Program-made: the position numbers and the translations under genes
DNA from: a virus
Virus record (IMG/VR): IMGVR_UViG_3300025168_000032
Span: 1 to 64,000 of that record
Direction: 5' to 3' (one strand)
Length of the DNA: 64,000 nt
In this document: positions 15,793 through 39,026 of the stretch, one piece after another
Layout: the number at the start of each line of letters is the position of its first letter
Numbering within the stretch: position 1 is the first letter of the stretch
The notes under the pieces: model-generated
What the model was told of the DNA's origin: nothing
Seen by the model: only the letters and a program-made list of their open reading frames with translations
Database searches by the model: none

Positions 15793-15794
15793 TC

Positions 15795-18445: not shown

Positions 18446-19148
18446 TATACTAATAACAGGAGTCAACAGTGGATTGGGCAAATATATTCACAACCATATT
18501 AAAGGGTCCGTGGGTCTGCATAGGCAAAACCTAGGCGCTGTGCTCTCCTGTTCATCTATCGACACAATTATACATTGTGCTTTCGATGCGAAAAGAGAGA
18601 TAAATGACCACTATCAGTATTTTAATGATAATCTCTATCTCACAAAACAATTACTGGGGATGCCGCATCAAAAATTTATTTATGTATCATCTGTAGATGT
18701 TTATCGAGAAGAGCAATCATACTATAAGTTGATGAAACTTATGGCCGAATCTATAGTAAAAAACGAGAGTAAAAACTACATCATCGCAAGATGTTCAGCG
18801 ATGCTTGGAGAAGGAATGAGGAAAAACACTTTGGTAAAATTATCAGAAAAGAACCTTTTAAAAACTGGGCTTTCAAGTAAGTCTACTTTTAATTATGTTT
18901 TATATGAAGACATTTTGTCTTTTTTTAACAAGTCTATTGAAAATAATCTATCTGGTGTTTATAATTTGGTATCAAGATCCAACATATCTTTATCAGAGAT
19001 CGGTGAGCATTTTGAATATTATCCAAAATATGGAGATTTTCTATATAATACCCCTGTGGTAGAAAACAATATCCCATCTGATCTTTCCTCAATGGGACAA
19101 AGAACGTCACTTCAAAATATAAAGAGGTTTATAAAACAAAATGACTAA
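18432..19148 (+). CDS. SDR-family sugar epimerase/reductase, short
   Basis: 238 residues with ITGVNSGLG as a degenerate Rossmann glycine motif and YVSSVDVY and YYKLMK as the SDR Ser and YxxxK active site. It is shorter than extended SDR sugar enzymes (300-340 residues), and the C-terminal substrate-binding part looks reduced. It may be a reductase that acts last on a 4-ketosugar, analogous to RmlD or ColC, but this is inferred from position alone. It overlaps the genes before and after it by 14 and 8 bases. Confidence 0.8.
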   Translation: MRSNNILITGVNSGLGKYIHNHIKGSVGLHRQNLGAVLSCSSIDTIIHCAFDAKREINDHYQYFNDNLYLTKQLLGMPHQKFIYVSSVDVYREEQSYYKLMKLMAESIVKNESKNYIIARCSAMLGEGMRKNTLVKLSEKNLLKTGLSSKSTFNYVLYEDILSFFNKSIENNLSGVYNLVSRSNISLSEIGEHFEYYPKYGDFLYNTPVVENNIPSDLSSMGQRTSLQNIKRFIKQND

Positions 19149-21091: not shown

Positions 21092-21095
21092 CACA

Positions 21096-21833: not shown

Positions 21834-22219
21834 AAGTTATTTGGGTAAATGGTTGTTTTGATATTCTACACCGAGGCCATGTAGAGTTATTTAAGTATGC
21901 CAAATCACTGGGAGAGTTTTTGGTGGTAGGTATTGATGGGGACAAGAGAATCAAAGAAACCAAGGGCCCCGAAAGGCCCGTTAACAATCGTCGAGATCGA
22001 CAATTCTTTCTTGAATCAATCAGATATATCGACGAGGTGGTCGCTTTTGATAATGATACAGAGCTTGAAAATTGGATCGAGTTTTTTCAACCAGACGCGC
22101 TAGTTGTCGGTGTCGAGTATAAAACTAAGGGAGTCATTGGTTCAGAGCATGCAAAAAAAATTGAATATTTTGATCGAGTAGGAGAATATTCAACAACAAA
22201 CATATTGGAGAGAAAATGA
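21830..22219 (+). CDS. HldE-like cytidylyltransferase-fold nucleotidyltransferase
   Basis: 129 residues from ATG 21830, in an ATGA overlap with the kinase gene. An open frame runs upstream of 21830 but overlaps the kinase. The opening VNGCFDILHRGHVELF has the HxGH nucleotide-binding motif. Later GVEYKTKGVIGSEHAKKIEYF and EYSTTNILE (ISTTxI-type motif) match the adenylyltransferase domain of HldE. It should make an ADP- or similar nucleotide-activated heptose from the kinase product. The same fold is used for glycerol-phosphate and other activations, so heptose is likely but not certain. Confidence 0.9.
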   Translation: MKVIWVNGCFDILHRGHVELFKYAKSLGEFLVVGIDGDKRIKETKGPERPVNNRRDRQFFLESIRYIDEVVAFDNDTELENWIEFFQPDALVVGVEYKTKGVIGSEHAKKIEYFDRVGEYSTTNILERK

Positions 22220-22533
22220 CATATGTAATAGACATAGATGGGACCATTTGTACAAATACGGATGGGGATTACAAGAACGCGAAACCCATTGTAGAGAGAA
22301 TAAACAAAATCAACAAATTATACGACGATGGCAACATTATATATTTTTTGACTGCAAGGGGTATGGGGAGATTTAATAACAATTCCGAATTGGCAACTCA
22401 TAGCTTTCTATCCTTAACAAAGCAACAGCTAGACAGTTGGGGAGTGAAATATCATGAGTTATTTATGGGTAAGCCCTCTGGTAACTTGTATATAGATGAC
22501 AAGGGGGTGAAAGATGAAGACTTTTTTATCTAA
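22216..22533 (+). CDS. HAD-family phosphatase
   Basis: 105 residues, ATGA overlap with the gene before. HAD motif I is VIDIDGTIC (nucleophile and acid Asp residues near residues 5 and 7). Motif II is in IYFLTARGMGR, motif III Lys is likely in MGKPSGN, and motif IV in YIDDKGVKDEDFF. It is very short with no cap domain. Similar small HAD proteins accompany capsule and O-antigen genes. Lying behind the split HldE pair, it could supply the GmhB-type heptose bisphosphate phosphatase step, but GmhB proteins are longer (about 190 residues) and carry a zinc loop not seen here. Confidence 0.85.
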   Translation: MTYVIDIDGTICTNTDGDYKNAKPIVERINKINKLYDDGNIIYFLTARGMGRFNNNSELATHSFLSLTKQQLDSWGVKYHELFMGKPSGNLYIDDKGVKDEDFFI

Positions 22534-22879
22534 TGATATTAAATTTGTACCAAAAGGGTGGGGATTTGAAAAGTGGATTGTGAACTGCGAAGAGTATTGT
22601 GGAAAGCTTTTGTATTTTGTGAAAGGCAAGAAGTGTTCGTGGCATTACCACAAGCTTAAGGACGAAGTTTTTTATATTCAGTCTGGCGCGATTACGCTTT
22701 CCTATTCAGACGATGATGACTTGGGGAATGCCAAAAAGGTAATTTTGCAAAAAGGAGATAGATTTCACATCTATAGGGGATTGAGGCATCAAATGTATGC
22801 TATGGAAGACACAGAACTGTTTGAGTTTTCAACTCAACATTTTGATAGCGATAGCCATAGGGTTATAAAGGGAGATTAA
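22514..22879 (+). CDS. Cupin-domain sugar isomerase-like protein
   Basis: 121 residues forming a single cupin barrel. CSWHYHKLKDEVFYIQSG gives the cupin motif 1 (two His and a Glu for metal). KGDRFHIYRGLRHQMYA gives motif 2 with its His. This resembles the C-terminal domain of type II mannose-6-phosphate isomerases and other small sugar cupins. It may help supply mannose phosphate for GDP-mannose or isomerise a ketosugar. It overlaps the HAD gene by 20 bases and is followed with no gap by the epimerase gene. Confidence 0.85.
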   Translation: MKTFLSNDIKFVPKGWGFEKWIVNCEEYCGKLLYFVKGKKCSWHYHKLKDEVFYIQSGAITLSYSDDDDLGNAKKVILQKGDRFHIYRGLRHQMYAMEDTELFEFSTQHFDSDSHRVIKGD

Positions 22880-23746
22880 ATGAAAACAGTATTAGTCACA
22901 GGTGGTTGTGGTTTTATAGGAAGCAATTTGGTAGATATCTTGGTAAAGCAAGGTAACAGAGTGGTAGTCATAGATGACCTATCAGACGGAAAAAAAGAAA
23001 ACTGCAACAGGTTAGCTAAATATTATTTTGATGATTTTAAAAAGATCCTAACAAATGGTCTTGATGAGAGCATAGATACTATTTTTCATTTAGCTGCTGA
23101 GGCAAGAATACAACCATCTTTCAAAAAACCATTATACACTTGTGAAAACAATTCATATGGAACAGCAATTGTGTGCGAATATGCAAGAAATAACAACTGC
23201 ATGGTCGTATATGCTGGGTCAAGTTCGTTTTACGGTGGCGTTTACCTTAACCCATATGCTTTTGCAAAATGGCAAGGGGAAGAGGTTGTAAAGATGTACA
23301 CTAATGTTTATAATATAAAATCTGGTATTGCTAGATTTTTTAATGTATATGGACCTAGAAACCCGTTGATCGGTCAGTATACCCCTGTAGTCGCCATATT
23401 CGAGCAACAATATAGTAATAATGTACCTCTGACAGTGGTAGGTACAGGTGAACAAAGAAGAGACTTTACGCATGTATACGACATATGTAACGGATTAATA
23501 GCGATATCCAAGAAGGATAGAGAAGCCTCAATATTTAATTTGGGAACTGGCACCAACCACTCTATCAATGAACTGGCAGATATGTTCGGCAGGGAAAAGA
23601 AGCATCTACCAGCCAGACCCGGAGAGGCGAAAGAGACAAGAGCAGATATATCTAACTCCATAAAGGTTCTTGATTGGGCCCCGGAGCACAAATTAGAAAC
23701 ATATATAAATAATTTTTTAAAGGAGACAAAAAATGAAATTAAGTAA
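22880..23746 (+). CDS. NAD-dependent sugar epimerase/dehydratase, GalE-like
   Basis: 288 residues with intact extended SDR features: VTGGCGFIGSNLVD, HLAAEARIQPSF, a GSSSFYGG catalytic Ser strand and PYAFAKWQGEE with YxxxK. It continues with RFFNVYGPRNP and a GTGEQRRDFTHVYD stretch, as in UDP-glucose or UDP-GlcNAc 4-epimerases. A Shine-Dalgarno AGGGAG precedes the ATG. The last gene of the glycan cassette, it overlaps the first small phage gene at 23733. The substrate is probably a UDP- or GDP-sugar, unknown in detail. Confidence 0.9.
   Translation: MKTVLVTGGCGFIGSNLVDILVKQGNRVVVIDDLSDGKKENCNRLAKYYFDDFKKILTNGLDESIDTIFHLAAEARIQPSFKKPLYTCENNSYGTAIVCEYARNNNCMVVYAGSSSFYGGVYLNPYAFAKWQGEEVVKMYTNVYNIKSGIARFFNVYGPRNPLIGQYTPVVAIFEQQYSNNVPLTVVGTGEQRRDFTHVYDICNGLIAISKKDREASIFNLGTGTNHSINELADMFGREKKHLPARPGEAKETRADISNSIKVLDWAPEHKLETYINNFLKETKNEIK
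23704..23711 (+). promoter_or_regulatory. Possible T4-type late promoter
   Basis: TATAAATA, the exact T4 late -10 consensus, lies 21 bases before the ATG at 23733, at the junction between the glycan cassette and the gp55 region. The motif occurs once more on this strand inside a gene (48888-48895), and AT-rich DNA yields it by chance, so this is weak evidence. Confidence 0.3.
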
Positions 23747-25206: not shown

Positions 25207-25500
25207 ATGTCAAAAAAAGTTGATAGTTTTATAAATGAGGCGATAGACAACATTCGTGATGATCGAAAGATAACTCGTGAACTGTTGGATGACGCTATTA
25301 AGTGGCTTGCAAAAGATGAAGCTCGCCACAAAGAAGTCGGAATTATTATTTCGAAATATGTAGAAACCCTACAGAGATCAAATGAGCAACTTGTTAAAGT
25401 TGTCAATCTTATTAGCAAAAAAGAAGTATCCGAGGGGTTATCTGAAAATGATATGTCTCAGATATATGATATGATATCGAAAGGGGATATTGAAGAATGA
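25207..25500 (+). CDS. Small helical phage protein, unknown function
   Basis: 97 residues, almost all helical (EAIDNIRDDRKITRELLDDA, then KYVETLQRSNEQLVKVVNL). No Shine-Dalgarno stands out before the ATG. It lies between the late sigma gene and the hub genes and overlaps the latter by ATGA. A late-transcription cofactor (gp33-like size and place) or a baseplate-assembly factor are both possible; nothing in the sequence decides it. Confidence 0.7.
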   Translation: MSKKVDSFINEAIDNIRDDRKITRELLDDAIKWLAKDEARHKEVGIIISKYVETLQRSNEQLVKVVNLISKKEVSEGLSENDMSQIYDMISKGDIEE

Positions 25501-26888
25501 CAAAAAGGATACAGAACAAGATCACCAATAGATTTGATTCTATATCAGATCCCTATGGTCGAAAAGAGACCAGAGATTCTATGGTATTTGATTTTGTCCA
25601 AAATGAGCTTTCTAATCCATACACAGACACTCAGTGTTTTGGTGTCATATTAATGATCGAAACCCAAGGTATATTGGGACCTGACGGTTCGACCTTGCCA
25701 ACAACCCCCAACCCAACTCATCCATTCGTTATCACTGCTAGGGTGCGCCCTCTTGAGCCCATGATCGAAGCTCAGGCTTTAGACGAGCCTTGCAAATTCA
25801 AAAGCGATCCTACTGCGCTGTATGAAAATTTAATGCAACATCCCATCGCATATTCCGAAACCCTAGATGGTGATGAGAGTTTGTTTATACCAACTGTCGG
25901 TGATGTCGTTCCGATTTATTATGACTTAGAAGGCCCGACCTCGCAAGGAAAAAAGAGAGGGCTGAGATTTAAAATGCAAAGAGTCAGGAGAGCAGAAGGC
26001 GGTTTTGATGCAACATGCTTAGCAGCGCTTGGAACCAAATTAATTGACGGAAAAATTTCATTAAGCAGAGTCGGAACCCCAGTATCAGTTATTGGTGTTG
26101 CTGGTGCTGGTGCTGCTGGAGCAGCAGGTTCTTACGGAGGAGCAGGTGCTGGAAATGCACAACAGGTGTTGATTCCATTCTTGGACTGCAAATTCGCAAC
26201 TAAAGGGTTTCAAGCTTCAACATTTGGAAAAGGAGACAGGGTAAAAAAGAAACAAATCAAACATGTTGTTTTGCACTCCACAGCCGGCAGTACTGGAAAC
26301 GGTAAGGCAAAAAGTACGATTGGCAGATTTTCTAGAACGCCAATTACAACAGGGTTTACAGACAAGAGTAAACCCAAAGGTCAACGGAAAAAGAATCCAC
26401 CATGTTCAGATTACGCACCCGGTCCACCATTTGATCCTCATAAGATGCCCCATGGGACAATTTGCCGAGAAAGAAAAGGAAAAAAAGGAAGACCAGCAAA
26501 ATACACTGTCGAAAAGAGAGTAAACACATCTATTCACTATGCATGCGATCAGGGAGGAAATATAATCCAAGGCTTGAACGAACGCCACAGAGGCTGGCAT
26601 GCCCCCGGTATGAATAAAACTTCTGTTGGAATTGAAATGTGCGGAGATCCCGGAAAGGGCAAAGGGCAAGGCGCAACTCCTAAATATGCTTCTATGTACA
26701 ATGAAAAACTTTTAGGAGCATGTGCGAAATTAGTAAAAGATATTTGCAAAAGGCACGGTTTGTCAATTAATAGAGATACCATTCGTGGACACGAACAGTC
26801 TAGCACGAATAGATCTGACCCCGGAGATAAAAAGAATCCCGGAGCATGGGATTGGGATGATTTCCTACAAAGAGTAAGGAGGGCATAG
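25497..26888 (+). CDS. gp5-like baseplate hub protein with N-acetylmuramoyl-L-alanine amidase domain
   Basis: 463 residues in two parts. Residues about 10-200 form the hub domain, with OB-fold features (TQCFGVILMIETQG, PFVITARVRPL, FIPTVGDVVPIYYDLEG), as in the OB domain of T4 gp5. A Gly/Ala-rich linker follows (about 200-222). Residues about 255-463 are an Amidase_2 domain: VVLHSTA with zinc ligand His260, SIHYACDQGGNI, GWHAPGMNKTSVGIE, RGHEQ (His432) and SDPGD (Asp441). It should cut the bond between MurNAc and L-Ala during entry through the periplasm. It is the first of two tandem paralogues. T4 gp5 has a lysozyme here instead. The ATG overlaps the stop of the preceding gene. Confidence 0.9.
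   Translation: MTKRIQNKITNRFDSISDPYGRKETRDSMVFDFVQNELSNPYTDTQCFGVILMIETQGILGPDGSTLPTTPNPTHPFVITARVRPLEPMIEAQALDEPCKFKSDPTALYENLMQHPIAYSETLDGDESLFIPTVGDVVPIYYDLEGPTSQGKKRGLRFKMQRVRRAEGGFDATCLAALGTKLIDGKISLSRVGTPVSVIGVAGAGAAGAAGSYGGAGAGNAQQVLIPFLDCKFATKGFQASTFGKGDRVKKKQIKHVVLHSTAGSTGNGKAKSTIGRFSRTPITTGFTDKSKPKGQRKKNPPCSDYAPGPPFDPHKMPHGTICRERKGKKGRPAKYTVEKRVNTSIHYACDQGGNIIQGLNERHRGWHAPGMNKTSVGIEMCGDPGKGKGQGATPKYASMYNEKLLGACAKLVKDICKRHGLSINRDTIRGHEQSSTNRSDPGDKKNPGAWDWDDFLQRVRRA
25531..26097 (+). repeat. Direct duplication, copy 1 of hub N-terminal domain
   Basis: 567 bases encoding the hub OB-fold region. It aligns without any gap to 26921-27487 at a fixed offset of 1390 bases. Several stretches of 15 or more bases are identical between the copies, such as the one that encodes FIPTVGDVVPIYYDLEG. 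The similarity ends at the Gly/Ala linker. Confidence 0.93.
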
Positions 26889-26892: not shown

Positions 26893-28416
26893 ATGAGTTT
26901 TAGTAAAAAAATGACTAACAAGTTTGATTCTATATCAGACCTTTATGGCAGGAAGGAAGCTAGAGATTCTTTGATTTTCGACGCTATGGTAAATAGCCTT
27001 TCTAGCCCGTATGGAGATACGCAGCTTTTTGGCGTTATATTGATGATCGAAACCCAAGGCATATTGGGCCCTGATGGCACAACCTTGCCGACGACCCCTA
27101 ATCCGACTCATCCATTTGTTATCACTGCTAGGGTTCGTCCACTCGCCCCATCAGCAGAGAGTTTTAATTTAGATGAGCCTTGTAAATACAAGAGCGATCC
27201 TACCGCATTGTACGAGAATTTGATGCAGCACCCAATTGCTTATTCTGAAACCTTAGATGGCGATGAGAGTTTATTTATACCAACTGTCGGTGATGTCGTT
27301 CCGATCTATTATGATTTGGAGGGCCCTACATCTTCTGGCAAGAGGCGTGGACTCCGTTTTAGAATGCAAAGAGTCAGGAGAGCAGAGGGTGGTTTTGATG
27401 CAACATGCATAGCAGCCTTGGGGGCGAAACTTGTAGATGGAAAAATTTCATTAAGCAGAGTTGGAACCCCAGCATCAGTTATTGGTGCTGGTGGTGCTGG
27501 GGGCGTAGCAGGAGCCGCAGGTGCTATAAGTGGCGCCGGAGTTGGAGCCACCCCCGGAACCCTTTCTCCTGCTACTCTAGCAGTGTGGCCAAGCGGAGTT
27601 ATAGGTGTAAAGAAAGGAGAAAAAGTGACTGGGGCCCCACGAGGGGTTTTCAAACAAGCAATGGCAAGAAGGGCTTGGTGGATGAACAAAGCTAATAATC
27701 CAAGATACCCACAAGTAGGGGCAAACAAATCAGGGAGAGATGTGAAGACTATAAAAAAGCCAAATCTTTTAACAATTGTTGACGGCACAAAGTCGAGAAA
27801 TGAGAAAAATTGTTGGACATATGATTTGAGTGTCGGAACAGACGGGGTCAAAGGTATTCTAGTCTCGACTTACAGTGGTATTGGTAGAGGAAGCTTTAGT
27901 CCCGGTGCTCCATACGCGCCTACAAAAAAAACAAAGGGTCCGGCTGTTGATTATAACAACGGAAACAATTCCACTAGCGCTGGTATGAAAATATTTGGTA
28001 GAAAACGAACTTTTAAGAAAAAAACAAATGCTTCCATTAGAGCGTTACAAATTTGGGGTATCGAACCGTGGAATTCACTCGAAGACAACAGGGGGGCCAT
28101 TGCCCACGAAACAGCACGAAAAGGAAGCCGAGCGGTTTCTTTTGGTTGTTTAGCTACGCATGGAAATGTTCTAGATCCTACTGACTCTGTACATTTTCAC
28201 GCTTGGGAAATTTGGAAAGGTGGGTCTTGGGTATATTTTTATAGCGGTCACACCGATGAATCAAAAGCTGGTAACGTTTACTGGCATAAGGGCCCCGGCA
28301 ATCCCATAAAGTCGGGAGAAAATAGAAAAACTTGGGATTGGAGTCAACCCCAAGGTGGACACTCAGCCCCGCCTCCAAAACCACCCCGAAAGAAGAAAAA
28401 GAAGAAAAAGAAATAA
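26893..28416 (+). CDS. gp5-like baseplate hub paralogue with L,D-transpeptidase (YkuD_2-like) domain
   Basis: 507 residues. The first about 200 repeat the OB-fold hub domain of the preceding gene with few changes. After a Gly/Ala linker the C-terminal part is unrelated to the amidase. It resembles the YkuD_2 type of L,D-transpeptidase: VSTYSGIGRG, NGNNSTSAGMKIFG, SIRALQIWGIEPWN, AIAHETAR with His405 and SFGCLATHGN with Cys419. His and Cys 14 residues apart with the S-x-G-C motif fit the Cys-nucleophile active site. Such enzymes make or break 3-3 and related peptide links in murein. The protein ends in a run of lysines. The family call is by motif order and should be treated as probable. Confidence 0.8.
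   Translation: MSFSKKMTNKFDSISDLYGRKEARDSLIFDAMVNSLSSPYGDTQLFGVILMIETQGILGPDGTTLPTTPNPTHPFVITARVRPLAPSAESFNLDEPCKYKSDPTALYENLMQHPIAYSETLDGDESLFIPTVGDVVPIYYDLEGPTSSGKRRGLRFRMQRVRRAEGGFDATCIAALGAKLVDGKISLSRVGTPASVIGAGGAGGVAGAAGAISGAGVGATPGTLSPATLAVWPSGVIGVKKGEKVTGAPRGVFKQAMARRAWWMNKANNPRYPQVGANKSGRDVKTIKKPNLLTIVDGTKSRNEKNCWTYDLSVGTDGVKGILVSTYSGIGRGSFSPGAPYAPTKKTKGPAVDYNNGNNSTSAGMKIFGRKRTFKKKTNASIRALQIWGIEPWNSLEDNRGAIAHETARKGSRAVSFGCLATHGNVLDPTDSVHFHAWEIWKGGSWVYFYSGHTDESKAGNVYWHKGPGNPIKSGENRKTWDWSQPQGGHSAPPPKPPRKKKKKKKK
26921..27487 (+). repeat. Direct duplication, copy 2 of hub N-terminal domain
   Basis: Second copy of the 567-base hub segment described at 25531-26097. The alignment has no insertions or deletions. 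The sequence beyond 27487 diverges into a different murein enzyme domain. Confidence 0.93.
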
Positions 28417-28434
28417 TCACTAACAGGAGTTACG

Positions 28435-29358
28435 ATGAGTAAAGTCGATGGTTATATACCAAATATAGACGGGTTAACAGAACAAGCAAAATTAGAAATT
28501 AAAAAAGGTGTCAATGACGGTTTATTCTGCACTGATGTCCAAGAGAAAGTACCAAATCGATACAAAGCAGGTTGCGAAAAGGTTATAAAAGGTAGAAACA
28601 ATTCTTGGATTGTGCTGGGTCGTGACAGGCCTTCGACAGTCGTAACGGGCGCTGGCGGAGCAGGATACACCCAGTGTGGGATGATCGATATGGTAGTTGG
28701 CCTTGGTGCTGTTACATCTACGAGGGAAATAAAGAAAGGGGAAGACCCCCTCGGTCCCAAGAATGTAGTTAGCGCTAATTTTGCTGCCGATGCTGCTAGG
28801 TTATACATGTCGCAAAGGTGTGTTGGTAAAGGTGGCATTGATGCCTACCTTGGACTAAGCAGAACCAGAGGTCCCTCTGCTCAAAATAAATCGGCAATTG
28901 CATTAAAAGCTGACCATGTTCGCATTGTAGGGCGTGAGAATGTAAGGATCTATGCCGCCAGAACACAAAACTTTCAAGGCTTTGGTCTTGGCGGCGAACC
29001 GACTACGTTAGGGACGCCAATTACAAAATCAACCATTGAACTGGTAGCCGGGAGAGAAGAAGATCTCCAACCAGCGGTTCTGGGTGATAACTTAAAAAGA
29101 TATCTTGAATCCAAAGACGAGTCGATGACAAACGTACTTAGAGTCATTCTTGGTATTGTAGGTCAATTAATGGAATTGAACTCCGCTGTTATGTTTCTAA
29201 ACCCTGCTTTGATGAAAAACATCCCCAAAAACATTAATGACTATTTCGATACAATTATAACCACGTTAAACAACGAAATCGACAAGATTAATTCACTGGA
29301 CAAACTGATAGTATCTGGTGGTAACCCACTACTTAGCAACACCGTATTTATAACTTAG
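28435..29358 (+). CDS. Probable baseplate spike or hub-associated protein
   Basis: 307 residues with AGGAG before the ATG. The central part is Gly-rich beta sequence (STVVTGAGGAGYTQCGMIDM, then ALKADHVRIVGRENVRIY), which resembles the repetitive beta structures of tail-spike and gp5 C-terminal domains. The C-terminal third is helical and ends with NTVFIT. It follows the two hub proteins and is probably part of the central spike or its adaptor. I cannot assign it to a named family with certainty. Confidence 0.7.
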   Translation: MSKVDGYIPNIDGLTEQAKLEIKKGVNDGLFCTDVQEKVPNRYKAGCEKVIKGRNNSWIVLGRDRPSTVVTGAGGAGYTQCGMIDMVVGLGAVTSTREIKKGEDPLGPKNVVSANFAADAARLYMSQRCVGKGGIDAYLGLSRTRGPSAQNKSAIALKADHVRIVGRENVRIYAARTQNFQGFGLGGEPTTLGTPITKSTIELVAGREEDLQPAVLGDNLKRYLESKDESMTNVLRVILGIVGQLMELNSAVMFLNPALMKNIPKNINDYFDTIITTLNNEIDKINSLDKLIVSGGNPLLSNTVFIT

Positions 29359-29367
29359 AGGTAAAAA

Positions 29368-32300
29368 ATGTCAAAAACTCCCATATGTGCGCCAATAGCG
29401 CCATTGCCAAAGCCCGACCCAAAGGCCCCATGTCCAACTTGTTTACCAGACAAGACCTTTGTTGAGCCAACGTGGCACACAACAGAATCCCCTTATTTAA
29501 ACAGGAAAACCTGCGAGTATATGGTATCGGTAACCGTTAACAGTCGTGGGGATTCGCACACAACAAGCTCAGTCAAAAAAGCTGGATTGCCTTTTAAAAA
29601 GTTGTTGAAAACCTACATAAGACCCGGCCTTCGGGAATTATTAAGATATTTCGACAAATTAGAAAATGATGAAATAGTGTGTGCGTCTTATACAACAGAA
29701 CAAGGCGGAATAAAATCTGTTTCCATAGGCATGGAAGGGCCCAAGCCCAAGGTCAAAGTCAAATCAAAATCTTCTAAATACGCTTTTGATAAAGAGTGTA
29801 GGGAGATCTTAGATTTCGATTATTCTGAATTTATAAAAATCAAAAACAAACCATCCACATTGCAAGGCGACAGTGTTCACAAGATATATAACATCGACGA
29901 ACAGATAAGACAAAAATACCCACAGATAAAAAATATAAATGCTATTGAGTTATATGCTAGAGCTATAGACTACCATTTTACTGGATACGGTGAAAGCGTA
30001 ATGAAAGTATTAATAGCAATACCTGCATTTATATTTGATCAAGTACCGGAGGCCCCAGACTTACCAGACGTAGATGTCAGCGCTGAGAGATTATTCATTT
30101 CTCCAAGAAGGTTACACACCGACATTACTCGGTTGAAAGAAGTGTTGTTATCTTTTTCTCAATATCAAGCATTTTTCTATCGCTACCAGAATGGGACTTT
30201 ATATTTTAAAGACACAGAGACAACAGAAGAGTCAGACGAAGCAGAGACCAGTGACCCGCTAAAGAAAGTAGGGAAAAAGTTTTATATAAAATTTTATGTT
30301 AAAAGATTAGAACTTTTCGAGAATGCGCTAGAAAAACTTCTCAAACAGAACGGGTTCACATATAGTACATTTCTTAATAGAAGAACCTCAGACATGCCTT
30401 GGAGAATAAAATTTGTTTTTGACAAGAGCGACGAAAAGCGCCCTTTTACTCTTAAGAGAGTGGGGGTGAAAATAGAAGGTTGTTATTACAAAAAATTAGG
30501 AAAAGGCCTGTCATCTTTTCTCAAAAAAGGACTGATACAAGACCAAACCCTAATGGGCTTAATAGCAAATATAAAAGATATTAGGAGTGATCTGGACGCC
30601 CGAGAAACGCCCGGATGGCTAGATTTTTGTTTAAAGTATATCTATCCCAATTTGGGAGTAAACTATGGCTCAAAAGACAAATATAAAGAACAAACAGCAG
30701 TTAATTGCTTAGGGGATAAACTTGGATTAAACGGAATCGATGATTTCGTACACAATGCTGTAGGGGAGTTCACGGATTTGTTCGCATATCAGTTTAACAA
30801 AAACCAATGTCGCGCCCTAGGGCAAAAACTTCCGGAAATCGACTTGTTTGATTCATCCGGAGGCATTCAGGACAAATACATTGATGAGTGGTATAACAAC
30901 AAATACGCAAAAATCGGTGAACCATCCATTCTAGAAGAAATGCTAAAGGATATAAAAAGTAATTGGGATAATGTAAACAAGTCAGAGGACAAATTGAAAA
31001 ATCTTATGGGGGCGTTAAATCCTTGTAATTTTTTCCAGCTTGGGCTAAAGGCCATACAGTGTTTGATGTCTGGTATGTCCTTCGAGGCCTCTATGAGGAT
31101 CATGGCTAAAAAGGCCTTATCAACAATGGCTAGTGATGCTTTGGAAAAAGTTATGGAAGCTTTACCATACGACAAGCAAGAAGAAATAAGGAAAATGGTG
31201 GAAGACAAATTTGGAAATATGCCTGCTCCTTGGGAGCAGGGGTATAAGCCCGGTAGCTTTGATAAAGTTATTGACAAGAGGACTGCTGACGGGATAGCTT
31301 CGAAAGAAAAAGCAGCAAATGAAATGTTGGATAATCAGAGCGATGCTGTAACGAAAATGAAAGAACTAAACAAAAGGGTGGAGGAGTTAGCCACTTGTCT
31401 TGAAAATCCAAACATCTGTACGCGAGACGGGAAATTGAGACCCCCTCCGCCACCAGTAGTCGCAGTTTATCCACCATTGACATATGTCGAAAACATGAGA
31501 AGGGGCGATCAAGGAGCAAGCGTGACAGCCTTACAAGTAGCTTTGGTAACGCTAGGACACAAATTGGTCCCAGATGGGGATTTTGGTAAAATAACCAGAA
31601 ACGCCCTGAAAGCATATCAGAGATCTGCAAAAATACTGGTTGATGGGATTGCTGGTCCACAAACAAGAGGCAGTATAAATTCAGCTTTAGCAGCTAAAGC
31701 ACAAGCGGAAAATGACAGTGAGGCCCCTAACGAAGACCCAATAGTTATTAACAAGCCAAACTCTACAGAAAAACAAGTTCTTGAATCGTCGGGTGTTGTA
31801 CAGGGATCTACCGATAGTTTATACGGTGATATTCTAAAGGAACTTATGGATGCTCACAAGCAAACAAACACAAGTGTACAAAACACAGAGCGAGAATTGA
31901 AAGAAGATGAACAGAAGTTAGAAAATCTAAAGGGCAAGCTAAGGAGCGTTGGCGAGGAACAAGAGCAAAAACAAAAAGATTTGGAAGCGGCTAAAGCTAA
32001 AATGAGGGCTTACATGAACCAACTTGAAATAGACTGGTTTGATTATGGCGGTATCAAGACAATGACCGCTTGGCAGAAAGTGGAGGTGAAAGATCTCCAA
32101 GACAAAATAGACGAAGCACTACAGGCAACGGCCAAATTGGAACAAGATTATAATAAGATGTTGCCCGGTATCGAGTATTTGGAAAAGAGAATTCTAAAAA
32201 AAGCCGCAGCCGTAAAAGCAGCATACGAAAAAAGAACAGAATCATATGATACTGCTATGAATTTAGAGAAAATGGTAGACGACAAGATAAAAGAATTACA

Positions 32301-35300
32301 AGGAGAGTGGTTTACGAAGAGAACTGAGTTGCAATTGGCGATGGCTGAACAGGCTAAAAAGTATTCAGCCAATGATACAACGTTAAATGAAGAATCTGGG
32401 CCGTATGCTAACTGGAATGATCTCTCGGAAGATGAAAGGACGTCCCTAACCGCAAGAGAGAGAAACAAACACGACGACAGAATCATGAAAGGTGTAAGTC
32501 CAGACGATCCTGATTTCGAGCAAGGCACCTATGGTAAAGCCTTGGGGGATATCCAATCAGCAGTAACATCGGCATATGTGGAAGCAATAATGGAGACTGC
32601 GGAATTACAACAACTTATGGGTATACTTAACAAACTCCCCGGAGTTAAGCTTATTGGTTCTTTCCTTGCGGGTTTGAAGTGCCCCTTGCCAAGTTTTATC
32701 TACCCTCCATTATCAAGTTTTCTTGGAACGTTGACTCTTGATCCTTGTGGCCCCGGCAAAACAAGGATATCCTTTGGTGAGCTTCCAAAACTGCGAAGCT
32801 TTAACGGTTGGAATTTTTTAAATATATTAAAAAATGCTTTTGTAGATGCTCTTTTGCAGGTAGTAACCGAGATAATGTTTGCTATAATTTTTAAGCTGGC
32901 TTCTATTGTGTTTGACGTAACATGCCAGACTTTAGCAGCCGCAGGTCAAGCCGCTTTTAAAGGAATAGTTGGTGACAGCGGATGGAGAAACGCGGTAGAC
33001 GATTTCTTTTGTGGCAAAGACAAGCCTGAAGACGAGCGTGATGATCACGCTGCGCTGGTTTTAAAAACAGCCGTCCCTCAAATACCCGGAGATGCCAAAG
33101 ATCTGGCTAAGACGATGTCTGTTATCGGTACTAAATCTGAATATGCAAGAGCAATCACTTCCCTACCAGAAGACCAAGATATGGGTTTTATGAAAAATCT
33201 ATCTTCACTTATAGTTGCAAACCACCCAGAGTACGCACTGACTATGGGAACTCCTGAAATGCTCGTTATGTTCTTTTCGCAGGTAGGAAACCTTTTAACA
33301 GCAGACCAGATTGTCCAACTGAGAGATTCTTTAGATTTTGAGTCGGAAATTCCTCTAGATGACAGTATATGTTTGACAGACGATGAACTTGACCAATGGG
33401 CTCAGGATAGAGAAGACGCATTAACAAACGCAGGATTAGATCCTCAAATAGCAAAAGATTTTGTTGCGAGGCAAGATGAAAGAAGGAAATCGGATTTGGC
33501 AGATATAGCAGATATTCTATCACAATCACCAGAGGGAATGCTAGAGAACGCCTTGAACGAAGCGCTTGGTGCAAGTGATCCTGATCCGGGTTGTGACGTC
33601 TCCAAGTCAGCAGTACAATTAGAGAAAATAGAGCAGGTCAAAGATGCTGTCGGTAAAGCTACCAAGGGCATGTTCAAGAGGTTAGAAAAGGCCTTTTTCG
33701 ATGATATAATTCTGTGGCGCTGGCCAATGGACCCAAGGTCATGGAATGACACACCGGGAATTCTAAGCACCATATTGGCAGATACACAGGGGTATACTTT
33801 AAATTTCCACAATATAGCAAGAAACAATATCTTTTTTAAAACATCTAACTTTGTTACTTTTGGTTTTTATCCTAAGTACGAAGAGTACCCCGAGACAGTC
33901 GGGATAAAGTTCAGAGAAGCCCTTTTGGAAACCAGCTTTAAGTCAGAAGGCACTAAGACCAAAATACCAATTAAGTATGATATTACTGATGACTATTCTT
34001 GGAAAAGTGTGATCACGTTGACGGACGAATTCAAAGAGACAAACGACCTTGGTCAAGAAGTCTACCCTCGTGCGTTCGATTACAAATTCAAACAAAAATC
34101 ACCAGAAAACATACTAGGTACGTTTAGGGTTGAAAAACCTTTGGGCCCCGATAATAAAGACTATCAAAAATATAAACTGTTGCCTTCTAACGGACAACTT
34201 GGAAAAAGTGATTTCAGAGGTTTGGTGATGAAGAACCTGTTGAACAACTGGGTCTATAAAGATTTTAACAATGTAGATATTGATGAGTCCGAGGCAAGGT
34301 CTCTGATGTCTAAATTGCAGAACATTGTAAATACAAAATTTGTAGCTTCTCTAATGAGCGTTGATGGGAATATCCCATCTGGTTTCCTCCACGGTAGTAA
34401 AAACCAAGAAATAAAAGCAGAACACCTTGAATATGTTGCCCCGGATGGGGCAGAATACGATTTTGAAGAAACAGACGCAGTTTTCGGAAGAGCAAAGTCT
34501 GGAAACGGTAGGGTCAAGTTCCTAGACCCTGCTAAGTATGGTGGAGACTATACTTCACCAAGTATTTATATTTCACCCCCTAAAGACGAAGGTTTGATGC
34601 AAATTGCGAGGGTTTTTGTTCCGCATATTTCGGAGGGGTGTAACCCAGATTTGTCAAAGTCTCATTTTTTAAAATTGGATCAAATAAAAGAAATTATAGA
34701 TGCTGCGAGAGCCGGTATGAAACCCCATAAGAAGTTGGAATTTTCCCCTGAGTGTGTAAGAGAATTCCCATTTGATAAAATAGCTTCTCCTGCCACTCTT
34801 GCTTCACTAGAAGGGGTCGTTATAGCCACCATAAGAGTATATCTGGCAGACTTTTTTGCCAAAACGATGCCTATTTGGTCAAGCATTTCTTTGGTTTCTT
34901 TGGTCAACAACGCTGAGAACTATGATGAATTGCTACCAGAGTATATTGTCATGCTTATGAAGCGAGGTCTTTCTAGCGAGAAGTCCATCTTTTCTCGTGC
35001 TACTTATGAGGCTTACCCGTATTGGCTTTTATTCTTGGAGCAAGCGGCTCAAGTTGTGCAAAGGAGAGTGAAGAACGGCTCCATAGAAGAGACAACAGAT
35101 ATTAAAGAGGCCTTTGATACTATCAACGAACTACAAAATCAACATGTTGTTGCGAGTCCAAAAGATTTGATACTTGTGGCAAAATCATACGATGGAGATG
35201 TAAAGGTCAACAATTTCGCAAATGATTATTTGGCAGAATCGATTGTTAAGGGTGGGGCATTGATAGGTGGCGTTATGGAACGTGGAGAGTTGCCTTCTGG

Positions 35301-36792
35301 CACGAGTTCTTTTGGAAGTATCTTGTGGTCTGCTTTCGGCTTAAAAGAGGCCCGGTTTAGCGCTAAAATGTGGACTCTTCACCGTGGCCGCAAAGCTGCC
35401 ATGACTTTGTTAAAATACCTTGTGATCGGTGAAATCAATGAATATCAGTTAACGATGGCAAAGAAATTGCATGAAATGAATAATATGCCGCATTTTAATG
35501 ATTTGGGTTTGTCCTTGATAGGGAAGCATGGCGCAGCGGTAGGTAAAGCTCCAGAGAGTGGAATCTGGGCGACTACACCAGATAGTGAAGGGTTCAAAGT
35601 GCCACCAGAAACAAGAAGAAAATATGGTGATGTAAATTCTGTGTCGTCCAACCCGCTTGAGAGACACAGCATAGAGAGTGCAAAGGGAAAGTTGCCCAAA
35701 GTTAAACAAGAAGATTTTGACTTTATGAAAGAAAACGGAGCACTTTTTCTAGAAAAATATATAAGACTATTCGATCGTACAGAGGAAAGCAGCACAAAAC
35801 CAATCCCAGATTTTATCAAAAACAGACCAAACCACCTCAAGGGTGTAGTTAACATATCTGATTTCAAGAAGTTTCTTAATGACAACAAAGATTCGATTCC
35901 GGCAGATATAAGAATATCAGATTGGTTTATGGCAAAAGAGATTGCCGAGTCTGAAGAAAATAAGCCTGCTGAGTATGAGGACATAGTTGGTATAAAATAC
36001 GGTGTTAGGCTATGCTATATACCCGACGAAGATTTCCGGCCTTTTAGCTTGCCAAACACAGAGGACAACAATAAGGCAATTTTAGAAAAATCTTTTAAGT
36101 GCAAGCCAATATCATTCGAGGTAGAAAGGGAATCTACGGTACCCGGCTCCTTATCTGGTCCGACTTATCAGGTTAGTGTGCTAGAAGGTTCCAAAAATAC
36201 TTTTCCCATAGAGGAGATAGAACAGGAAATACCTGATACTGAGTTAATTAAATTAATTGAATTTGATGATGATTTAAATCAAGAATTAAGGTGTTATGTC
36301 GATAGGTTGACCCTTGGCACAAGATTTGATTTAATATTTCATAAGACTCTGCACCTAAAAAGAATAACCTCCCTGCTTATGATATCATCTTATGACAGTT
36401 GGGTGCCTTCGATAGGCGCGAAAGGCAGCAAAGAAAGGATAGAACCAGAAATCCCCGAAGCTTACGAGGACATGGAAGACGATCCACCATCCTATTCAGA
36501 CCCCGGTGGAACGCCATATTTTAACGATAGCAGAAAAGAATGTAGAAAATTGTTTATAGCCAATTACAAGAGAAGCGATTATGACCCAAAGGACGAAGAA
36601 GAAGATTTCGACCCAATCAAGGACAACGTACAACAAATGATGTCAAATACATTTAGCGCTGTTTCATACGGCTCAGATGTTCCTTTCTGGATGAAATGGA
36701 GAGTTCTTAAGGAAAACCCTGACGATAAAGAGGGTAACGCTTGTGGTAATCAGTTCACTAAACTATTTAAGAAAACAGAGGAAGAAGAATAA
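29368..36792 (+). CDS. Giant baseplate/tail protein with peptidoglycan-binding domain (2474 aa)
   Basis: A 2474-residue protein, one of the two largest in the window. Residues about 1-700 are mixed alpha/beta without a recognised family. About 708-770 is a PG_binding_1 domain: RGDQGASVTALQVALVTLGH, GDFGKITRNALKAYQ and VDGIAGPQTR. About 820-1010 is a long coiled coil (alternating Lys/Glu/Leu). The remaining 1450 residues hold several hydrophobic segments around 1100-1200 (for example GVKLIGSFLAGLKCP and VVTEIMFAIIFKLA) and an acidic end. Its place behind the hub genes and before gp25 suggests a central baseplate or tape-measure-like role with murein contact. A Shine-Dalgarno AGAGG precedes the ATG. 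Confidence 0.8.
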   Translation: MSKTPICAPIAPLPKPDPKAPCPTCLPDKTFVEPTWHTTESPYLNRKTCEYMVSVTVNSRGDSHTTSSVKKAGLPFKKLLKTYIRPGLRELLRYFDKLENDEIVCASYTTEQGGIKSVSIGMEGPKPKVKVKSKSSKYAFDKECREILDFDYSEFIKIKNKPSTLQGDSVHKIYNIDEQIRQKYPQIKNINAIELYARAIDYHFTGYGESVMKVLIAIPAFIFDQVPEAPDLPDVDVSAERLFISPRRLHTDITRLKEVLLSFSQYQAFFYRYQNGTLYFKDTETTEESDEAETSDPLKKVGKKFYIKFYVKRLELFENALEKLLKQNGFTYSTFLNRRTSDMPWRIKFVFDKSDEKRPFTLKRVGVKIEGCYYKKLGKGLSSFLKKGLIQDQTLMGLIANIKDIRSDLDARETPGWLDFCLKYIYPNLGVNYGSKDKYKEQTAVNCLGDKLGLNGIDDFVHNAVGEFTDLFAYQFNKNQCRALGQKLPEIDLFDSSGGIQDKYIDEWYNNKYAKIGEPSILEEMLKDIKSNWDNVNKSEDKLKNLMGALNPCNFFQLGLKAIQCLMSGMSFEASMRIMAKKALSTMASDALEKVMEALPYDKQEEIRKMVEDKFGNMPAPWEQGYKPGSFDKVIDKRTADGIASKEKAANEMLDNQSDAVTKMKELNKRVEELATCLENPNICTRDGKLRPPPPPVVAVYPPLTYVENMRRGDQGASVTALQVALVTLGHKLVPDGDFGKITRNALKAYQRSAKILVDGIAGPQTRGSINSALAAKAQAENDSEAPNEDPIVINKPNSTEKQVLESSGVVQGSTDSLYGDILKELMDAHKQTNTSVQNTERELKEDEQKLENLKGKLRSVGEEQEQKQKDLEAAKAKMRAYMNQLEIDWFDYGGIKTMTAWQKVEVKDLQDKIDEALQATAKLEQDYNKMLPGIEYLEKRILKKAAAVKAAYEKRTESYDTAMNLEKMVDDKIKELQGEWFTKRTELQLAMAEQAKKYSANDTTLNEESGPYANWNDLSEDERTSLTARERNKHDDRIMKGVSPDDPDFEQGTYGKALGDIQSAVTSAYVEAIMETAELQQLMGILNKLPGVKLIGSFLAGLKCPLPSFIYPPLSSFLGTLTLDPCGPGKTRISFGELPKLRSFNGWNFLNILKNAFVDALLQVVTEIMFAIIFKLASIVFDVTCQTLAAAGQAAFKGIVGDSGWRNAVDDFFCGKDKPEDERDDHAALVLKTAVPQIPGDAKDLAKTMSVIGTKSEYARAITSLPEDQDMGFMKNLSSLIVANHPEYALTMGTPEMLVMFFSQVGNLLTADQIVQLRDSLDFESEIPLDDSICLTDDELDQWAQDREDALTNAGLDPQIAKDFVARQDERRKSDLADIADILSQSPEGMLENALNEALGASDPDPGCDVSKSAVQLEKIEQVKDAVGKATKGMFKRLEKAFFDDIILWRWPMDPRSWNDTPGILSTILADTQGYTLNFHNIARNNIFFKTSNFVTFGFYPKYEEYPETVGIKFREALLETSFKSEGTKTKIPIKYDITDDYSWKSVITLTDEFKETNDLGQEVYPRAFDYKFKQKSPENILGTFRVEKPLGPDNKDYQKYKLLPSNGQLGKSDFRGLVMKNLLNNWVYKDFNNVDIDESEARSLMSKLQNIVNTKFVASLMSVDGNIPSGFLHGSKNQEIKAEHLEYVAPDGAEYDFEETDAVFGRAKSGNGRVKFLDPAKYGGDYTSPSIYISPPKDEGLMQIARVFVPHISEGCNPDLSKSHFLKLDQIKEIIDAARAGMKPHKKLEFSPECVREFPFDKIASPATLASLEGVVIATIRVYLADFFAKTMPIWSSISLVSLVNNAENYDELLPEYIVMLMKRGLSSEKSIFSRATYEAYPYWLLFLEQAAQVVQRRVKNGSIEETTDIKEAFDTINELQNQHVVASPKDLILVAKSYDGDVKVNNFANDYLAESIVKGGALIGGVMERGELPSGTSSFGSILWSAFGLKEARFSAKMWTLHRGRKAAMTLLKYLVIGEINEYQLTMAKKLHEMNNMPHFNDLGLSLIGKHGAAVGKAPESGIWATTPDSEGFKVPPETRRKYGDVNSVSSNPLERHSIESAKGKLPKVKQEDFDFMKENGALFLEKYIRLFDRTEESSTKPIPDFIKNRPNHLKGVVNISDFKKFLNDNKDSIPADIRISDWFMAKEIAESEENKPAEYEDIVGIKYGVRLCYIPDEDFRPFSLPNTEDNNKAILEKSFKCKPISFEVERESTVPGSLSGPTYQVSVLEGSKNTFPIEEIEQEIPDTELIKLIEFDDDLNQELRCYVDRLTLGTRFDLIFHKTLHLKRITSLLMISSYDSWVPSIGAKGSKERIEPEIPEAYEDMEDDPPSYSDPGGTPYFNDSRKECRKLFIANYKRSDYDPKDEEEDFDPIKDNVQQMMSNTFSAVSYGSDVPFWMKWRVLKENPDDKEGNACGNQFTKLFKKTEEEE

Positions 36793-37172
36793 TGGCCAAT
36801 TTAACAGTAAGATTCCCGTTAGAACAAACAGGAAAAAACACAGGCTTTGATTTACTTTCTAGTGAAGATATAAGGGATTTGGTCAAATTTAATATCAAAA
36901 ACACCCTCTTGACATGTCCGGGCGAACGCACATTTGACAGCGAGGACTTTGGGGCTTGTTTGAGAAAAATATTATTTGAATACCCAACTGCATCTGTTTT
37001 AGACACAGCAGCTTCAGCGATAAGAAAGCAATTGGGGATATTCGTTCCGTATATTGTTTTAGAGGATGTTGATATCACAAACCCGGACAATATGGTAGCA
37101 CATGTCAGGCTACTATACTATATAAATGAAATAGAGGCTAGAGACGAACTGTTAATTAGAGTCAGAGTATAA
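36792..37172 (+). CDS. gp25: Baseplate wedge protein, gp25/W-like
   Basis: 126 residues with the GPW_gp25 fold: FDLLSSEDIRDLVKFNIKNTLLT, GERTFDSEDFGACLRKILFE and a helix ASAIRKQLGIFVPYIVLEDV. Gp25 forms the conserved core of contractile-injection baseplate wedges and resembles lysozyme only in name. It starts at the stop of the giant protein (TAATG) and is followed after 51 bases by the gp6-like gene, the order found in T4. Confidence 0.93.
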   Translation: MANLTVRFPLEQTGKNTGFDLLSSEDIRDLVKFNIKNTLLTCPGERTFDSEDFGACLRKILFEYPTASVLDTAASAIRKQLGIFVPYIVLEDVDITNPDNMVAHVRLLYYINEIEARDELLIRVRV

Positions 37173-37223: not shown

Positions 37224-39026
37224 ATGCCAAAAAGCAAAAATATTAATATAAAATACACCAGTAGAGAATTTGAATCTATCAAGGAAGACCTTATAGATCA
37301 TGCTAAACGATATTACCCAGATACCTATAGGGACTTCTCGAAGCCTTCATTCGGAGCAATGGTAATAGACAGTGTGGCTTACGTTGGCGATGTGTTGTCA
37401 TATTATTTAGACTATCATGTTAATGAATCCTTTATGGATACGTCGATAGAATTTGATAATATCAGGAAACATGCTAGATCCCTTGGTTATAACTACACTG
37501 GTGTTCCTACTACATACGGTATTTTAGATTTTTATGTTCTATGCCCAGCCAATGCAGAAGGAACAGCCCCAGATTTAACTTACTTACCAACGTTAAAAGC
37601 AGGATCGACCTTTACATCTGAAAACGGTGGAAATTTTATATTAACAGAGGACGTTATCTTCAATAGCGTAAACAACGAATTTAGAGCAGCTAGATTTAAT
37701 GGCGCGACAGGTGCTACAACCAATTTCGCTGTAAAAACTACAGGTCAAGTTCAATCTGGTATGCTGATGTCTGCTGAAGCAGACCTGACAGACGAAGCCT
37801 TCGAGAGATTCAGAAAAGTCAGAGTTGGTGCAGGAGAAGTTACGGATATAACAAGTGTTGTAGATTCCGAAGGAAATAAATACTATGAAGTTGATAACCT
37901 TGCTCAAGAAACCATATTAGTCGAAACCACAAACCCGGACGCCCTCACTGATGGTGTCAGATCTATAATCAAACCTTTTGTGGCCACTAGAAGATTTACT
38001 GTGGAGAGGGACGATACTGGAACATATCTACAATTTGGATTTGGTTCAGGGGAAGAAGACCCAACTGCTTTAGTCGACCCATCAAAAATTGCTTTAAAGA
38101 TGCACGGCAAAAATAATATAACTCTATCTTCTTTTGACCCTAGTAAATTATTAAAAAATGATAAACTTGGTGTCTCTCCTTACAACACAGTCCTCACGAT
38201 CATATACAAGTTGAATAACATTGGATCGATAAATGCAGGAGCGAATAGCGTCAGTGTTGTTTCGCGAGCAATTTATAATTTTAACAACTTAACTAGTTTG
38301 GATACCAGTCTTGTTTCCGGAGTAAAAAACTCTCTAGAATGTACAAATCCGCTTCCCATTACGTCTGTTATCGATAGCTCCGTAACCGTTCAAGAAATTA
38401 AACAAAGAGCAAAGGCATCCTTCGCAGCACAAAGTAGAGCGGTAACAAAGCAAGACTATGAGTCTTTAGTGTACAATATGCCTCCAAAATTTGGAGCAGT
38501 AAAGAGGGCGAATATAGTTAATGACCCTTCTTCAACGAATAGGCGGATTTCCTTATATGTGATATCAGAAGACGATAGCGGCAATTTAGAATCTCCGGGT
38601 CAGGTGACCAAAAACAATATTAAAAATTGGCTTGTATCTTACAAGTCGTTAAACGATGTTATCGACATTTACGATGCTATAGTGATTAATTTTAAAATTA
38701 ATTTTTTAGCTATTTCTGATAAAAGATATGACAATAAAGAGGTACTATTTGCATGTGCAGAGGCCCTTAGAGTATACTTTGAAGACATTCTTTATATCGG
38801 TGAGCCACTATATTTGACTAGATTATACGAGGTCTTGAATAGAGTAGAAGGCGTCGTAGACATAAAAAATGTCTCAATTGATGAGGCCGTTGGCGGATTG
38901 TATTCAGGCGCCAGTTTAAATTTCAAAAAAATTCTATCTAAAGATGGAACATATTATAAAGTTCCTAGAAACGTGGTTCTTGAATTAAAATATCCATCTC
39001 TAGACATAAAAGGTACAGTAAAATAA
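37224..39026 (+). CDS. gp6: Baseplate wedge protein, gp6/J-like
   Basis: 600 residues. The opening is typical of T4-like gp6: KYTSREFESIKEDLIDHAKR, GAMVIDSVAYVGDVLSYYLDYHVNESF, RKHARSLGYN. The middle is a beta-rich module and the end has a second conserved core (YDAIVINFKINFLA, LYEVLNRVEGVVDIKNVSI). Gp6 homodimers build the iris ring around the hub and control sheath contraction. The 51-base gap upstream (37173-37223) is the largest space in the tail module. It holds AT-rich sequence and the Shine-Dalgarno AGAGGG, but no convincing sigma70 or late promoter. Confidence 0.92.
   Translation: MPKSKNINIKYTSREFESIKEDLIDHAKRYYPDTYRDFSKPSFGAMVIDSVAYVGDVLSYYLDYHVNESFMDTSIEFDNIRKHARSLGYNYTGVPTTYGILDFYVLCPANAEGTAPDLTYLPTLKAGSTFTSENGGNFILTEDVIFNSVNNEFRAARFNGATGATTNFAVKTTGQVQSGMLMSAEADLTDEAFERFRKVRVGAGEVTDITSVVDSEGNKYYEVDNLAQETILVETTNPDALTDGVRSIIKPFVATRRFTVERDDTGTYLQFGFGSGEEDPTALVDPSKIALKMHGKNNITLSSFDPSKLLKNDKLGVSPYNTVLTIIYKLNNIGSINAGANSVSVVSRAIYNFNNLTSLDTSLVSGVKNSLECTNPLPITSVIDSSVTVQEIKQRAKASFAAQSRAVTKQDYESLVYNMPPKFGAVKRANIVNDPSSTNRRISLYVISEDDSGNLESPGQVTKNNIKNWLVSYKSLNDVIDIYDAIVINFKINFLAISDKRYDNKEVLFACAEALRVYFEDILYIGEPLYLTRLYEVLNRVEGVVDIKNVSIDEAVGGLYSGASLNFKKILSKDGTYYKVPRNVVLELKYPSLDIKGTVK

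What the first reader, a model, noticed from the sequence alone, without database searches (positions are those of the whole stretch)
27800..28416. L,D-transpeptidase-type catalytic domain on a virion hub
The C-terminal part of the second hub has the motif order of YkuD_2 enzymes (VSTYSG, NGNNSTSAG, SIRALQIWGIEPWN, AIAHETAR, SFGCLATHG). Phage hub lysins are usually muramidases, amidases or endopeptidases, so this class on a baseplate would be unusual. Acting as a hydrolase it could cleave L,D-crosslinks; acting as a transpeptidase it might reseal the entry hole.
Basis: partly seen in the sequence, partly recalled or inferred. Interest (0 to 1): 0.7.

Follow-up and report, generated by a model that had tools for sequence, protein, structure and literature searches.

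The report
Transpeptidase-type enzyme on phage tail hub
A marine phage appears to carry, on one of two paired tail-hub proteins, a cysteine enzyme domain related to the bacterial enzymes that cross-link cell walls, in a position where its relatives carry wall-cutting enzymes, so it probably helps open the host wall with a chemistry not described for phage tails in the literature I could search.

Summary
The C-terminal domain of the 507-aa ORF (26893-28416) is a remote relative of the YkuD_2 (PF13645) L,D-transpeptidase catalytic domain. Pfam and NCBIfam miss it. A profile comparison with real YkuD_2 proteins gives 96.6% probability and E 4.8e-10 over the whole domain; the best of 100 shuffles gives 16% and 1.6e-3. 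It keeps Arg400, His405, Ser416, Gly418 and Cys419. A second allele, in a phage 97.7% identical up to this gene's stop codon but only 42% identical in this domain, keeps the same residues, which suggests a working enzyme.

The gene sits in a baseplate module. In 80 related viruses the same position codes for modular proteins whose C-terminal domain is VanY, Amidase_2, M23, M15, SLT, lysozyme or muramidase; the tandem sister copy here carries Amidase_2. The most likely role is cutting host peptidoglycan during entry, by hydrolysis at the DAP-D-Ala bond. Transpeptidation (resealing) is possible but unsupported.

No other hub among the 80, and no genuine tail gene found in 50,697 phage records, carries this class. 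It is a new variant of a known kind: a swappable hub lysin with a new catalytic class.

The parts
26893..28416 (+). hub2: 507-aa protein with an N-terminal hub-type domain and a YkuD_2-like catalytic C-terminal domain
   Evidence: ORF; N-terminal residues 4-226 81% identical to hub1
27748..28245 (+). YkuD_2 (PF13645)-like L,D-transpeptidase-type catalytic domain, residues ~286-451
   Evidence: hhalign 96.6% prob, E 4.8e-10, whole-domain alignment; A1 v A2 96.3%, 1.5e-9
28090..28092 (+). Arg400, invariant in all 50 aligned sequences
28105..28107 (+). His405, presumed catalytic base
   Evidence: invariant in all 50 aligned sequences
28138..28149 (+). Ser416-Phe-Gly418-Cys419, catalytic motif with the presumed nucleophile Cys419
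   Evidence: Ser, Gly and Cys invariant in all 50 aligned sequences
28390..28413 (+). C-terminal run of eight lysines directly before the stop
   Evidence: read from DNA; the second allele L026 also ends in Lys
25497..26888 (+). hub1: 463-aa tandem paralogue
26511..26828 (+). Amidase_2 catalytic domain of hub1
   Evidence: Pfam E 8.8e-22; genome search
25207..25500 (+). 97-aa conserved gene directly upstream of the hub genes, used as synteny anchor
   Evidence: alignment 53-69% identity to relatives; 414 viral loci matched
28435..29358 (+). 307-aa conserved downstream neighbour of the hub slot
   Evidence: present next to the hub in relatives
31369..31722 (+). endolysin-like region (probably peptidoglycan binding) inside the 2474-aa baseplate-module protein
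   Evidence: PHROG endolysin families, residues 668-785
36792..37172 (+). gp25-like baseplate wedge protein
   Evidence: phrog_261 E 2.6e-6; PF04965 E 3.7e-4, below the curated cut-off
37224..39026 (+). baseplate wedge protein
   Evidence: phrog_219 E 3.8e-15; 31% identical to annotated baseplate wedge of Flavobacterium phage immuto

Best explanation
Hub2 is one of two tandem tail-hub (tip) proteins of a contractile-tailed marine phage. Its C-terminus, a position where relatives carry interchangeable wall-cutting domains, carries a diverged YkuD_2 L,D-transpeptidase-type domain. During entry it is carried into the periplasm with hub1. Cys419, activated by His405, attacks the L,D bond between the third residue (DAP) and D-Ala4 of a peptidoglycan stem; because D-Ala4 of a donor stem also carries the ordinary 4-3 cross-link, hydrolysis of the acyl-enzyme cuts that cross-link, while the hub1 amidase strips stems from glycan. 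Shown: homology, conserved active-site residues, gene position, nature of the slot. Inferred: virion location, catalytic activity, hydrolysis rather than transfer, and the exact bond.
For: Homology to YkuD_2 over the whole domain. Arg400, His405, Ser416, Gly418 and Cys419 invariant among 50 sequences. A second allele, 42% identical, keeps R/H/S-x-G-C and EIWKGGSW, so the active site is preserved across large divergence. The identity of two near-identical phages (97.7% over 28414-38070) drops exactly at the hub2 stop codon, as expected for an exchanged domain. In 94 ORFs from the same slot of 80 relatives the Pfam domains are VanY 25, Amidase_2 7, M15_4 5, M23 4, Phage_lysozyme2 3, DUF2272 3, DUF5715 3, SLT 2, M15_3 2, Muramidase 1. 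Tandem hubs with complementary activities occur elsewhere: L143 SLT+VanY+OmpA, L144 VanY+SLT. A separate Amidase_2 gene at genome position 143707 is the likelier endolysin. Literature: YkuD-family enzymes include LD-carboxypeptidases and LD-endopeptidases as well as transpeptidases (PMC12729407); hydrolytic DpaA and LD-carboxypeptidases lack an Arg conserved in transpeptidases (PMC8263019); hub2, its allele and YkuD_2 have Ala at Cys+2, where canonical (S/T)XGCh(R/N) motifs have R/N (PMC10434034).
Against: No activity data. No structural model. The His-to-Cys spacing is shorter than in any compared YkuD_2 (14 v 22), and one near-invariant His is lost (Ile330). The Ala at Cys+2 is a trait of nearly all YkuD_2 members, so it does not show that this one is a hydrolase, and I identified 'the conserved Arg' of PMC8263019 with that position by inference. 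The N-terminal domain matches no known hub family.
Confidence: 0.58

Rival explanations
1. The domain is a true L,D-transpeptidase that re-cross-links peptide stems after the tail has passed and so reseals the entry hole, protecting the host from lysis while the phage replicates.
For: YkuD_2 relatives are annotated as murein L,D-transpeptidases; the acyl-enzyme can be resolved by an acceptor DAP as well as by water.
Against: The characterised domains found in this slot in relatives are wall-cutting, apart from one wall-binding OmpA domain; a single virion carries few copies, so large-scale repair is unlikely; no sequence feature separates transferase from hydrolase here.
Confidence: 0.14
2. 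An L,D-carboxypeptidase or D-amino-acid exchange enzyme that edits stem ends without cutting cross-links, like the type VI effector Tlde1a.
For: Tlde1a shows that an altered LD-transpeptidase fold can be delivered by a phage-tail-like machine and trims tetrapeptides (PMC9638812).
Against: Trimming alone would not open the wall for a tail tube; Pfam gave no match at all at E<=10 for hub2, including to the Tlde1 domain family.
Confidence: 0.12
3. The domain is a catalytically weak or dead relative kept for binding peptidoglycan stems and positioning the hub.
For: One near-invariant His replaced and loop lengths altered; an OmpA (wall-binding) domain occupies a hub paralogue in L143; inactive YkuD domains are known (PMC10434034).
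Against: Arg400, His405, Ser416, Gly418 and Cys419 all kept, also in the 42%-identical allele.
Confidence: 0.1
4. Not an L,D-transpeptidase-type domain: chance motif similarity in an unrelated fold.
For: No hit in Pfam, PHROGs or NCBIfam; PF13645 search of the genome empty at E<=10; no structural model.
Against: Profile-profile E 4.8e-10 against 1.6e-3 for the best shuffle; motif order and the surrounding strands align over the full domain.
Confidence: 0.06

Closest known systems
YkuD_2 (PF13645) murein L,D-transpeptidase catalytic domain proteins of Bacteroidota and other bacteria
   Same: Full-length domain alignment; R..H, S-x-G-C-x-A, N-x-x-S and IKxGS(C/W) elements in the same order
   Different: Carried on a phage hub protein instead of being a free bacterial protein; H-to-C spacing 14 not 22; VAHG His replaced by Ile330; scores below Pfam detection
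Modular hub lysins of related marine myoviruses (L027-L031, L129-L208)
   Same: Same gene position between the 97-aa and ~307-aa genes and a C-terminal wall-active domain; N-terminal domain 26-29% identical in L027-L029 and clearly homologous there
   Different: Their domains are VanY, Amidase_2, M23, M15, SLT, lysozyme or muramidase; none is a cysteine L,D-transpeptidase type. The N-terminal match to the L030/L031 muramidase hub (23%) is weak
T4 gp5-type hub with tail lysozyme
   Same: Hub protein of a contractile tail carrying its own wall-cutting domain (established knowledge)
   Different: No detectable sequence relation of the N-terminal domain; different enzyme class
Type VI effector Tlde1a
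   Same: L,D-transpeptidase-type enzyme delivered by a contractile injection machine and acting on peptidoglycan (PMC9638812)
   Different: Different family with a capping subdomain and an HXX14-17(S/T)HGC motif; a toxin acting on competitors, not an entry enzyme
DpaA/YafK (LdtF)
   Same: A hydrolase with the YkuD fold, showing the fold need not cross-link (PMC8263019, PMC11449479)
   Different: Canonical YkuD branch; cuts the lipoprotein-peptidoglycan link; periplasmic bacterial enzyme
L125 stand-alone YkuD_2 gene in a 44-kb viral contig
   Same: YkuD_2 domain in a probable phage genome (E 1.5e-48)
   Different: 189-aa free protein, not fused to a tail protein

Membership tests
YkuD_2 (PF13645) | Score above the Pfam gathering cut-off (27 bits) | tested here: not met
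   No match in hmmscan or in the six-frame PF13645 search
YkuD_2 (PF13645) | Homology to real family members by profile comparison | tested here: met
   hhalign 96.6%, E 4.8e-10; beats 10,000 shuffles by HMM score
YkuD_2 (PF13645) | Active-site Arg, His, Ser-x-Gly-Cys in order | tested here: met
   R400, H405, S416, G418, C419 invariant in all 50 rows
YkuD_2 (PF13645) | VAHG His and FSN..S..SS.G segment | tested here: not met
   Ile330 for His; YNN for FSN; S360 kept; SS-x-G replaced
YkuD_2 (PF13645) | L,D-transpeptidase fold | not testable with these tools
Canonical YkuD (PF03734) | HXX14-17(S/T)HGCh(R/N) motif | tested here: not met
   H-X10-S-F-G-C-L-A; no PF03734 match
Enzymatically active L,D-transpeptidase | 3-3 cross-link formation | not testable with these tools
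   needs an enzyme assay
Hub lysin of this virus group | Gene between the 97-aa and ~307-aa genes in the baseplate module | tested here: met
   window order and relatives
Hub lysin of this virus group | Conserved N-terminal domain plus C-terminal wall-active domain | tested here: met
   N-terminus 81% to hub1 and 26-29% to L027-L029; slot contents
gp5/VgrG-type hub | OB-fold or needle domain recognised by sequence | tested here: inconclusive
   No Pfam, PHROG or PDB sequence match for the N-terminal domain
Hub lysin of this virus group | Protein present in the virion | not testable with these tools
   needs virion proteomics of an isolate

The most novel reading that the evidence does not exclude
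The domain acts as a transpeptidase with its own carrier as acceptor: it joins the lysine-rich C-terminal tail of hub2 (eight lysines ending the protein; the second allele also ends in Lys) to host DAP, as L,D-transpeptidases join the C-terminal lysine of Braun's lipoprotein, and so rivets the injected tail tip covalently to the sacculus.
Probability: 0.05. Interest if true: 0.9.

Novelty: new variant of a known kind. Interest (0 to 1): 0.6.

Why it matters
Known tail-tip lysins are, from established knowledge, muramidases, transglycosylases, amidases and metallo- or NlpC-type peptidases. A cysteine L,D-transpeptidase-type domain in a slot where relatives keep swapping lytic domains would add a bond, the DAP-D-Ala L,D bond, to those a phage can attack on entry, suggest hosts or growth states rich in L,D-linkages, and give a natural test of whether this fold can serve as a lytic enzyme. 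It also exposes a large natural library of exchangeable hub lysins in one virus group.

Tried and rejected
Direct searches with the domain or the N-terminal part in viral contigs and 50,697 phage records: nothing. Single-sequence AlphaFold: useless (pLDDT 32). PDB sequence search with the domain, with a YkuD_2 consensus and with the N-terminal profile: no relevant chain. The 169-aa YkuD_2 consensus was written from memory only as a search bait; it was checked against Pfam (267.9 bits) and left out of the profiles used for the main test. Phage-record hits to YkuD_2 or YkuD: the contexts read were bacterial flanks of prophages or likely bacterial contigs and were not counted as phage enzymes; not all ten YkuD hits were read. 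The OQ658363/L124 gene was set aside as a phage enzyme for the same reason. Alignment A2 was too diverse for pattern scans.

Full report
Observation. The preceding ORF 25497-26888 (463 aa) is a paralogue: residues 4-226 are 81% identical, and its C-terminus is an Amidase_2 domain (Pfam E 8.8e-22). The C-terminal part of the 507-aa protein has no hit in Pfam, PHROGs or NCBIfam, and six-frame searches with PF13645 and PF03734 are empty at E<=10.

Is it a YkuD_2-type domain? I used a YkuD_2 consensus as bait (it scores 267.9 bits with PF13645), collected real family members from plasmids and bacterial genomes, and built profiles without any hub sequence. hhalign of the hub2 domain alone against these gives probability 96.6%, E 4.8e-10, hub2 residues ~286-451 against nearly the whole domain; the best of 100 shuffles reaches 16% and 1.6e-3. 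With the second allele added: 96.3%, 1.5e-9 (that profile did include the consensus row). By hmmsearch without filters the domain has 16.5 bits against 8.3 for the best of 10,000 shuffles, and among 243 ORFs of the window only this one scores (E 2.5e-4). In a 50-row alignment six columns are invariant, among them Arg400, His405, Ser416, Gly418 and Cys419. Of 48 near-invariant family columns hub2 keeps 19; 10,000 random draws never exceed 12; note that the alignment itself was optimised, so the last figure favours hub2 somewhat.

Departures. The family's VAHG His is Ile330, FSN is YNN, and SS-x-G is lost. The distance from His to Cys is 22 in all 48 compared members, 14 in hub2 and 27 in the second allele. 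This is a diverged, loop-variable offshoot, not a close member.

A second allele. Contig 3300025128_008049 (L019/L026/L033) is 97.7% identical to the window over 28414-38070, and the similarity falls exactly at the hub2 stop codon; upstream, the hub2 C-terminus is only 42% identical in protein. That allele keeps RGAI.HET, S.GC.AT and EIWKGGSW. Retention of the active site at this divergence argues for a working enzyme, and the sharp boundary argues for domain exchange.

The slot. The wedge protein 37224-39026 brought relatives. Where the neighbourhood is present, one hub gene lies between the 97-aa and the ~307-aa genes: L027 and L029 carry VanY, L028 a weak DUF2272, L030/L031 an N-acetylmuramidase. 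The N-terminal domain is clearly shared in L027-L029 (26-29%), only weakly in L030 (23%). Using the 97-aa gene as anchor, 414 viral loci matched and 80 were kept; the next gene is a hub-size ORF in nearly all. Ninety-four such ORFs give VanY 25, Amidase_2 7, M15_4 5, M23 4, Phage_lysozyme2 3, DUF2272 3, DUF5715 3, SLT 2, M15_3 2, Muramidase 1 (some proteins match two families). No other hub among them matches the YkuD_2 or hub2 profile. Tandem hubs with different domains exist in L143 (SLT, VanY, OmpA) and L144 (VanY, SLT).

Virion location. It is inferred: the gene lies in a module with two baseplate wedge proteins, one gp25-like, and a separate Amidase_2 gene elsewhere (genome position 143707) looks like the endolysin. 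No sequence match ties the N-terminal domain to gp5 or VgrG.

Mechanism. L,D-transpeptidase enzymes attack the DAP3-D-Ala4 bond with their Cys and release D-Ala4 and anything attached to it (PMC9638812). If water resolves the acyl-enzyme, a 4-3 cross-linked donor is cut loose; LD-endopeptidase activity is known for LdtCd2 and LdtCd3 (PMC12729407), and DpaA shows a purely hydrolytic member (PMC8263019, PMC11449479). Given a slot otherwise filled mainly by cutting domains, hydrolysis is the best reading; resealing remains possible. The eight-lysine C-terminus recalls the acceptor lysine of Braun's lipoprotein (PMC11449479) and is the basis of the speculative tether idea.

Novelty. PhaLP lists the YkuD cluster only 10 times among phage lytic proteins and does not list PF13645 in it (PMC8310338). 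In 50,697 phage records the YkuD_2 bait finds one record, a Pf-like record with the gene in bacterial flank; a generic YkuD bait finds ten, of which the two annotated contexts read are bacterial flank or contig. A stand-alone YkuD_2 gene exists in one viral contig (L125). I found no report of such a domain on a tail hub in the open-access library, which lacks most subscription journals.

Activity, bond and virion presence need experiments.

Noticed in passing
L143:5278-9516: Three tandem hub paralogues in one virus, carrying SLT, VanY and an OmpA (wall-binding) domain respectively; a hub with a wall-binding domain in place of an enzyme is unexpected.
   Followed up: partly
L125:3591-4160: Stand-alone 189-aa YkuD_2 protein (SWGCLAV motif) in a 44-kb viral contig, with a holin-like gene about 2 kb away on the other strand; possibly an unusual lysis enzyme.
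   Followed up: partly
window 28414 against L019: Two otherwise 97.7% identical phages differ abruptly at the hub2 stop codon, i.e. allele exchange at the hub slot within one virus species.
   Followed up: partly
A7 hub ORFs: Several hub C-termini match no wall enzyme (for example L144:3699-5162, L157:5285-6613, L158:5291-6757, L194:1462-3024), three match DUF5715 and one weakly Ribonuclease_T2: candidates for further unknown hub activities.
   Followed up: no
window 5676-23746: Cluster of glycosyltransferases, a Nol-like carbamoyltransferase, an aminotransferase and three nucleotide-sugar epimerases directly before the baseplate module, suggesting virus-encoded glycan synthesis.
   Followed up: no
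window 29368-36792: 2474-aa protein in the baseplate module with an endolysin-like, probably wall-binding region at residues 668-785.
   Followed up: no
OQ658363.1, MK416017.1, MW462191.1: Phage records whose L,D-transpeptidase genes lie among bacterial housekeeping genes, i.e. included host flank or a bacterial contig; a trap for novelty searches.
   Followed up: yes
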